From positions 1 through 64,000 of IMG/VR virus record IMGVR_UViG_3300022668_000040: DNA of 64,000 nucleotides. One strand, given 5' to 3'. The notes under the pieces were generated by a model, which was given only the letters and a program-made list of their open reading frames with translations, made no database searches and was not told where the DNA came from. Positions 59,786-59,918 of the stretch are shown here, one piece after another. The position numbers were made by a program, and so were the translations under genes. The DNA is from a virus. Numbering within the stretch: the first letter of the stretch is position 1; each line of letters begins with the position of its first letter.

Positions 59786-59918
59786 TTATGGACAAAATGT
59801 GAAAAATGAGTATTCTTTAGACTATTGCTCTACCAGCTGAGCTACACCTTCTGTGAAGATGAATGGACTCGAACCATCGACAAACAGTTTTCAGTAATCA
59901 TTTTTCTTCGGCCCATAA
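59786..59918 (-). ncRNA. yrlA: YrlA-type Y RNA A with tRNA-like domain
   Basis: On the minus strand TTATGG/CCATAA closes the RNA. The Ro60-binding site follows: GGGCCGAAG on the 5' arm and TTGTCC on the 3' arm match the bacterial consensus GNCGAAN0-1G and UUGNCC. Next AAAAATGA/TCATTTTT (8 bp), a loop, and an anticodon-stem-like helix ACTGTT/AATAGT. The tRNA-like head has T-stem GATGG/CCATT with loop TTCGAGT, a closed acceptor CATCTTC-ACA-GAAGGTG (one G-U), linker TA and D-stem GCTC/GAGC with loop AGCTGGTA. Every element of YrlA is present. It lies about 1.1 kb upstream of ro60 on the same strand. Confidence 0.88.

What the first reader, a model, noticed from the sequence alone, without database searches (positions are those of the whole stretch)
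59786..59918. Perfect YrlA architecture: tRNA mimic with closed acceptor plus consensus Ro60 site
The T-arm, acceptor hairpin and D-arm occur in permuted order with only ACA closing the acceptor, so there is no CCA end. The flanking helices carry GGGCCGAAG and TTGTCC, matching the bacterial Ro60-binding consensus as I recall it from published YrlA work. Each helix is directly readable. A tRNA finder could miscall this as a broken or permuted tRNA.
Basis: partly seen in the sequence, partly recalled or inferred. Interest (0 to 1): 0.9.

Follow-up and report, generated by a model that had tools for sequence, protein, structure and literature searches.

The report
Phage Y RNA array beside Ro60
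A tailed phage carries a gene for Ro60, a ring-shaped RNA-handling protein, and just upstream of it a row of four small RNAs built to sit on that ring, two of which imitate rearranged tRNAs and one of which carries a copy of a tRNA anticodon loop; the RNA that was flagged is one of these four.

Summary
On the minus strand, 59,917-59,787 folds as a Ro60-type stem carrying a T-arm, an acceptor hairpin closed by ACA, and a D-arm, in that order. It is a divergent YrlA-type Y RNA (Rfam YrlA 46.5 bits, E=7.5e-9, below the curated cut-off of 69). A Ro60 gene (TROVE + vWA domains, same strand) lies about 1.1 kb downstream.

The flagged RNA is not alone. Two covariance models built only from other phages and bacteria find exactly four Y RNAs in the 64 kb window, all on the same strand and all within 935 bp: one plain (E=1.7e-5), the flagged one (2.6e-15), a second tRNA mimic with a Glu/Gln-type D-arm (9.3e-12), and a weaker plain one (0.06). 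Similar arrays precede Ro60 in many phages.

[quoted passage not shown] Hairpins with a tRNA-type anticodon loop follow it far more often than chance (27 against 1.7 expected). Here the first Y RNA carries CUGUUAA, the tRNA-Asn anticodon loop.

Most likely these are interchangeable Ro60 adaptors that mimic tRNA parts. Ro60 binding and function are inferred. It is a new variant of a known kind.

The parts
59786..59918 (-). Flagged RNA: tRNA-mimic (YrlA-type) Y RNA. H1 59917-59911/59793-59787; CGAAG 59910-59906; H2 59905-59898/59809-59802; tRNA-Phe-like loop sequence CUGAAAA 59894-59888 (not closed by a good stem); T-arm 59878-59862; acceptor 59861-59855/59851-59845 with ACA loop; D-arm 59842-59827
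59926..59989 (-). Y RNA 'Ya' (plain stem-loop): H1 5' strand ends 59983 and pairs with 59932-59925; CGAAG 59982-59978; H2 59977-59970/59947-59940; UUAUC 59969-59965; anticodon-like 7-nt loop CUGUUAA 59963-59957 (tRNA-Asn GUU type) closed by about 5 pairs
   Evidence: 34.5 bits, E=1.7e-5
59503..59626 (-). Y RNA 'Yc': second tRNA mimic. H1 59625-59620/59509-59504; H2 59612-59608/59523-59519; UUAUC 59607-59603; hairpin GUC-AUUUGGA-GAC 59602-59590; T-arm 59583-59567; 7-bp acceptor 59566-59560/59555-59549 (terminal U-A pair); Glu/Gln-type D-arm 59546-59531
   Evidence: 58.2 bits, E=9.3e-12
59057..59119 (-). Y RNA 'Yd' (plain, weakest of the four): H1 59119-59113/59063-59057; H2 59106-59102/59076-59072; UUAUC 59100-59096
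   Evidence: 18.5 bits, E=0.062 in 64 kb
57050..58672 (-). Ro60 (Rsr-type) gene, 540 aa: TROVE domain plus vWA_Ro60 domain
   Evidence: Pfam 1.3e-36 and 7.5e-49; human Ro60 5e-98, Xenopus Ro60 1.6e-95, Deinococcus Rsr 3.9e-91
59126..59491 (-). ORF of 121 aa (ATG at 59479) lying between Yc and Yd; no Pfam or PHROG match

Best explanation
The locus encodes a phage Ro ribonucleoprotein: one Ro60 ring protein and at least four Y RNAs made from the same strand. Each Y RNA has the same foot, the stem GGGYCG...YCC with its internal loop, which should sit on the outside of the Ro60 ring. Each has a different head. The flagged RNA and Yc carry a circularly permuted tRNA (T-arm, closed acceptor, D-arm) without CCA end. 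Ya carries a short hairpin with a tRNA-Asn-type anticodon loop. Yd has a small loop of no recognised kind. My best reading is that the heads are interchangeable adaptors that look like tRNA parts, so that proteins which recognise tRNA (modification enzymes, tRNA nucleases, or an exonuclease such as host PNPase) are tethered to, or competed for by, the Ro60 particle during infection. Shown: the RNA anatomy, its conservation and covariation, the linkage to Ro60, and the variety of heads. Inferred: transcription, binding to Ro60, and the adaptor or decoy function.
For: Ro60 identity. The four RNAs are found by models that contain no window sequence. Covariation: both Y-stem helices, 188 double-change cells against 70 in shuffles and score 0.614 against 0.253; 17 of 22 pairs of the tRNA-mimic alignment have compensatory changes. 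Linkage: a strict descriptor gives 166 hits on the Ro60-sense strand against 14 antisense in 84 phage loci, concentrated in the 1.5 kb upstream of Ro60; at least 2 in 39 of 74 loci with enough flank. Anticodon-type loops after UUAYC: 27 against 1.7 +/- 1.3 in shuffles; CUGUUAA recurs on many different stems, and the 19-nt hairpin of Ya is identical in L031 and L065, where the surrounding stem differs. Yc's D-arm has a 19-nt exact match to phage tRNA-Glu genes.
Against: No expression or binding data. Yd alone is only borderline (E=0.062). The flagged RNA has UUACU in place of UUAYC and its anticodon-like loop is not closed by a good stem. No clear terminator was found and promoter-like sites are no more frequent than chance. 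No RtcB is in this record, so the RNA-repair operon context of Salmonella is absent, although the record is a 76 kb fragment. Adaptor, decoy and other functions cannot be told apart from sequence.
Confidence: 0.72

Rival explanations
1. They are decayed or fragmentary tandem tRNA genes: the 3' half of one tRNA followed by the 5' half of the next gives T-arm, acceptor, D-arm by accident.
For: Tandem tRNA junctions in ordinary phages do match the flagged stretch (e.g. tRNA-Asn|tRNA-Trp of phage PAU), and such a cluster gives weak partial hits of the tRNA-mimic model.
Against: In a tRNA-rich control (phage Lacusarx, no TROVE gene) the best such hit is 30.6 bits, against 73.7 and 58.2 here. The acceptor strands here pair with each other over 7 bp, and H1, H2 and the Ro60 motif surround them. 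Two of the four RNAs have no tRNA body at all. The resemblance may still tell where the mimics came from.
Confidence: 0.04
2. The RNAs are Y RNAs of the degradation type: Ro60 plus Y RNA tethered to host PNPase, which degrades structured RNA to recycle nucleotides; the tRNA-like heads only fold the RNA or receive modifications.
For: The Deinococcus Ro60/Y RNA/PNPase particle is the best-studied precedent (PMC4726728; PMC7790460). The phage also carries nucleotide-metabolism genes.
Against: Does not explain why heads differ so much between array members, nor the anticodon-type loops. PNPase contact sites could not be tested.
Confidence: 0.35
3. The RNAs are decoys that protect the phage from host enzymes that cut or otherwise act on tRNA (anticodon nucleases and the like).
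For: Heads imitate tRNA elbows and anticodon loops of several identities. A competitive-inhibitor role for the YrlA tRNA-like domain has been proposed in print (PMC7790460).
Against: Bacterial Ro60 loci carry the same kinds of heads, so the role is not phage-specific; the flagged RNA has no proper anticodon stem.
Confidence: 0.25

Closest known systems
YrlA RNA (Rfam RF02553; Salmonella and other bacteria, also reported in phages by Chen et al. 2014, known to me from memory and as cited in PMC4726728 and PMC7790460)
   Same: T-arm, closed acceptor hairpin and D-arm in permuted order on a Ro60-binding stem, next to Ro60
   Different: Scores 46.5 bits against a cut-off of 69; belongs to an array of four; the second mimic (Yc) has a Glu/Gln-type D-arm and was not matched by RF02553 at E<=1
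Y RNAs of vertebrates and nematode stem-bulge RNAs
   Same: Two-helix stem with bulge; [quoted passage not shown]
   Different: No overall sequence similarity; no Rfam Y RNA match at E<=1 in the 1.5 kb around the array; the review held says bacterial Y RNAs are not homologous to the vertebrate clades
Ro60 RNPs of actinobacteriophages (Mycobacterium cluster C, Gordonia, Streptomyces phages: 'Ro-like RNA binding protein')
   Same: Phage-encoded Ro60 (347 records, up to 40% identical) with YrlA-like RNA close by
   Different: Different phage lineage; the Y RNAs are not annotated in the records I opened
Permuted tRNA genes and tRNA-like structures
   Same: 3' half precedes 5' half
   Different: No CCA end, acceptor closed by 3-4 nt, grafted on a Ro60 stem; not called by ARAGORN

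Membership tests
YrlA-type Y RNA (broad sense) | T-arm, acceptor hairpin, D-arm in that order, acceptor closed, no CCA | tested here: met
   Flagged RNA and Yc
YrlA-type Y RNA (broad sense) | Ro60-binding stem GGGYCG with partner strand, H1 and H2 | tested here: met
   H1 and H2 covary in relatives
YrlA-type Y RNA (broad sense) | Encoded near Ro60 | tested here: met
   Ro60 57,050-58,672 on the same strand
Rfam RF02553 (YrlA) in the strict sense | Score at or above the curated gathering score of 69 bits | tested here: not met
   46.5 bits, E=7.5e-9; YrlA-like RNAs of named phages also fall below it. So I call it YrlA-type, not an RF02553 member
YrlA-type Y RNA (broad sense) | Binds Ro60 | not testable with these tools
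   Needs a binding experiment
YrlA-type Y RNA (broad sense) | Carries tRNA-type modifications (pseudouridine 55, dihydrouridine) | not testable with these tools
   T-loop UUCGAGU/UUCAAAU and D-loop GG are present (sequence)
[quoted passage not shown]
   Present in Ya, Yc and Yd; the flagged RNA has UUACU
Ro60 / TROVE protein | HEAT-ring TROVE domain plus vWA domain | tested here: met
   aligns to solved Ro60 over residues 19-529
Ro60 / TROVE protein | Metal-site motif DxSxS and T, D of the vWA domain | tested here: met
   D364-S366-S368, T449, D473 invariant in the phage alignment
tRNA (permuted gene) | Full cloverleaf with anticodon arm and CCA end after processing | tested here: not met
   ARAGORN calls only tRNA-Met at 56,536-56,611; no room for an acceptor 3' end (sequence)

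The most novel reading that the evidence does not exclude
Y RNA arrays beside Ro60, in phages and in bacteria, are sets of RNA mimics on a shared Ro60-binding foot: tRNA elbows of different tRNA types, anticodon hairpins of defined identity, and in some myxobacterial/deltaproteobacterial loci 23S rRNA helix 69. Ro60 would then be a platform that shows chosen pieces of the translation machinery to enzymes that act on them, either to recruit those enzymes or to keep them busy. The UUA(U/C)C motif shared with animal Y RNAs would make the loop entrance an ancient feature.
Probability: 0.45. Interest if true: 0.85.

Novelty: new variant of a known kind. Interest (0 to 1): 0.62.

Why it matters
What bacterial Y RNAs do beyond Deinococcus is open, and the role of the tRNA mimicry is a standing question. 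A phage-encoded particle with several different heads on one foot gives a natural comparison set: same protein, same foot, different mimic. The anticodon-type loops, the helix 69 mimics in bacteria, and the shared UUAYC loop motif give directly testable predictions about which enzymes the particles engage, and bear on whether bacterial and animal Y RNAs are homologous.

Tried and rejected
- Plus-strand structure: no better than shuffles.
- Pattern search of IMG/VR for the exact YrlA anatomy (GGGCCGAAG...GTAGCTCA...TTGTCC): no hit; relatives vary too much, so I went through Ro60 instead.
- Ro60 as a single-sequence query in IMG/VR: no hit; the alignment query found 204 relatives, 80 kept.
- Tandem-tRNA artefact: tested with phage Lacusarx and rejected.
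- RNA repair link: no RtcB in the record.
- The rest of the contig (60,000-76,088): no further plain Y RNA (the tRNA-mimic model was not run there).
- A synthetic 'un-permuted' tRNA for a tRNA finder was not made; position-by-position reading was used instead.
- The primary papers on bacterial Y RNAs as tRNA mimics (Chen 2014) and the YrlA structure are not in the held library, so I cannot exclude that some of the array, UUAYC or anticodon-loop observations are already described.
- The isotype of Yc is unsettled: its D-arm matches tRNA-Glu genes, while the terminal U-A pair and the loop AUUUGGA are reminiscent, from memory, of tRNA-Gln.

Full report
What was checked. The stretch 59,786-59,918 was read on both strands. 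The minus strand folds at -35.8 kcal/mol, z = -3.29, with no shuffle as good; the plus strand is ordinary. Rfam's YrlA model matches 59,908-59,797 end to end with 46.5 bits, E = 7.5e-9, aligning the T-arm, the acceptor hairpin and the D-arm in register. This is below the family's gathering score of 69, which is why the default scan of the window lists only one tRNA. ARAGORN also calls only that tRNA-Met. The helices and their coordinates are given in the observation check.

The surroundings. The gene at 57,050-58,672 on the same strand is Ro60: TROVE domain 1.3e-36 and vWA_Ro60 domain 7.5e-49 in Pfam, and full-length similarity to human Ro60, Xenopus Ro60 and Deinococcus Rsr of solved structure. 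The metal-site residues of the vWA domain are intact. The record is a 76,088-base virus contig with terminase, portal, major head and tail proteins and phage replication genes, so this is a tailed phage. Ro60 in phages is known: 347 phage records hold one, most annotated 'Ro-like RNA binding protein', and YrlA-like RNAs lie near it in phages Sixama, McWolfish and FuzzBuster.

Not one Y RNA but four. Eighty phage contigs with a Ro60 were fetched with an alignment query and 80 bacterial loci likewise. A descriptor of the Ro60 stem plus UUA(U/C)C gave 166 hits on the Ro60-sense strand and 14 on the other. Lengths fall mainly into two groups, about 55-80 nt and about 120-140 nt. I aligned 45 of the short kind and 39 of the long kind, none from the window, and built two covariance models. 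In the 64 kb window, both strands, the short model finds 59,989-59,926 (34.5 bits, 1.7e-5) and 59,119-59,057 (18.5 bits, 0.062). The long model finds 59,917-59,787 (73.7 bits, 2.6e-15) and 59,626-59,503 (58.2 bits, 9.3e-12), and after these only a D-arm fragment of the tRNA-Met. All four are on the Ro60 strand, within a 935-bp stretch upstream of it. The second tRNA mimic (Yc) was not in the finding; it has a perfect 7-bp acceptor, a 5-bp T-stem, and the D-arm UC-GUCUAGUGGUUAGGAC, of which 19 nt match phage tRNA-Glu genes exactly.

Evidence that the structure is real. In the short alignment, 83.7% of cells pair against 63.5% in shuffles, and 188 cells show changes on both sides against 70. In the long alignment 17 of 22 predicted pairs have compensatory changes, in H1, T-stem, acceptor and D-stem.

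A rival tested. Because a junction between two tandem tRNA genes also reads T-arm, acceptor, D-arm, I used a tRNA-rich phage without Ro60 (Lacusarx) as a control. The long model gives at most 30.6 bits there. The window's 73.7 and 58.2 bits are well above this. The many low-scoring hits of the long model in tRNA-rich loci should therefore not be counted as Y RNAs.

How general the array is. In phage loci the stem motif lies mostly in the 1.5 kb upstream of Ro60; of 74 loci with at least 2 kb upstream, 39 have two or more and up to seven. These are lower bounds, since the descriptor is strict. Bacterial loci that have any show one to five upstream, and some have them downstream.

The heads of the array. 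Most tRNA mimics have the common UAGCUCA D-arm; a minority have other types: Glu/Gln-like (window Yc, L019, L027, L042) and Leu/Ser-like (L026, L146, L166). The hairpin that follows UUA(U/C)C often has a 7-nt loop of the anticodon type YUNNNRN: 27 cases against 1.7 +/- 1.3 in shuffles. The loop CUGUUAA (tRNA-Asn type) recurs on many different stems. Window Ya carries it, and the 19-nt stretch GGTTATCACTGTTAATGAT is identical in L065 and L031. The flagged RNA carries CUGAAAA, as do its close matches L050 and L036, where it reads as a tRNA-Phe anticodon loop, but here the closing stem is poor. In Yc the hairpin GUC-AUUUGGA-GAC lies at this place. These isotype readings rest partly on my knowledge of tRNA anticodon loops and are leads, not proof.

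UUA(U/C)C. [quoted passage not shown] In the phage and bacterial loci it is strongly strand-biased after the Ro60 stem: 186 against 26 and 142 against 14. A review held says bacterial Y RNAs are not homologous to vertebrate ones (PMC4726728). Whether the shared motif is ancestry or convergence I cannot tell.

Function. The known precedents are the Deinococcus particle, in which Y RNA tethers Ro60 to PNPase, and the proposal that the YrlA tRNA-like domain competes for a tRNA nuclease (PMC4726728, PMC7790460). One foot with several different heads, in one array, fits an adaptor or decoy role better than a single structural role. This is inference.

Novelty. YrlA-type RNAs with Ro60, phages included, are a known kind. 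The array with mixed heads in one phage, the second mimic of another tRNA type, the anticodon-type loops and the UUAYC motif were not found described in the library I could search, but the two primary papers are not held. I therefore rate it a new variant of a known kind.

Noticed in passing
L106:4760-4900 (also L093 from 5030, L094 from 4867, L098 from 4763, L103 from 2911, L109 from 4687; variants in L099 from 2216 and L096 from 4806): Bacterial (Myxococcales, Kofleriaceae and other deltaproteobacterial) RNAs next to Ro60 that begin with the Ro60 stem motif and UUA(U/C)C and then carry the 23S rRNA helix 69 sequence; in L106, 29 nt are identical to E. coli 23S rRNA. They look like rRNA mimics on a Y RNA foot.
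   Followed up: partly
[quoted passage not shown]
   Followed up: partly
L168:4164-4225 (Sphingobium phage Lacusarx 67,163-67,224): Unannotated T-arm followed by a Glu-type D-arm between tRNA genes in a phage without Ro60; a tandem-tRNA remnant or permuted tRNA.
   Followed up: partly
58,927-58,970 and 60,003-60,060: Inverted repeats with perfect 13- and 11-bp arms flanking the array; further imperfect hairpins near 58,700-58,768, 59,740-59,780 and 60,075-60,140. Purpose unknown; the second lies just upstream of the first Y RNA.
   Followed up: no
59,126-59,491 (minus): 121-aa ORF between Y RNAs Yc and Yd with no Pfam or PHROG match and no relative in the other Ro60 loci.
   Followed up: partly
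59,640-59,786 (minus): 146 nt between the flagged RNA and Yc form strong hairpins (segment G) without the Ro60 motif; possibly another small RNA.
   Followed up: no
L093, L094, L099, L103, L106: Ro60 in these bacterial loci is flanked by clusters of many tRNA-like matches, several scoring as odd 'tRNA-Sec' or tmRNA fragments.
   Followed up: no
15,527-23,614 (plus): ORF of 2,695 aa in the tail gene region, probably a tape measure protein; a second very long ORF (2,187 aa) at 29,196-35,759.
   Followed up: no
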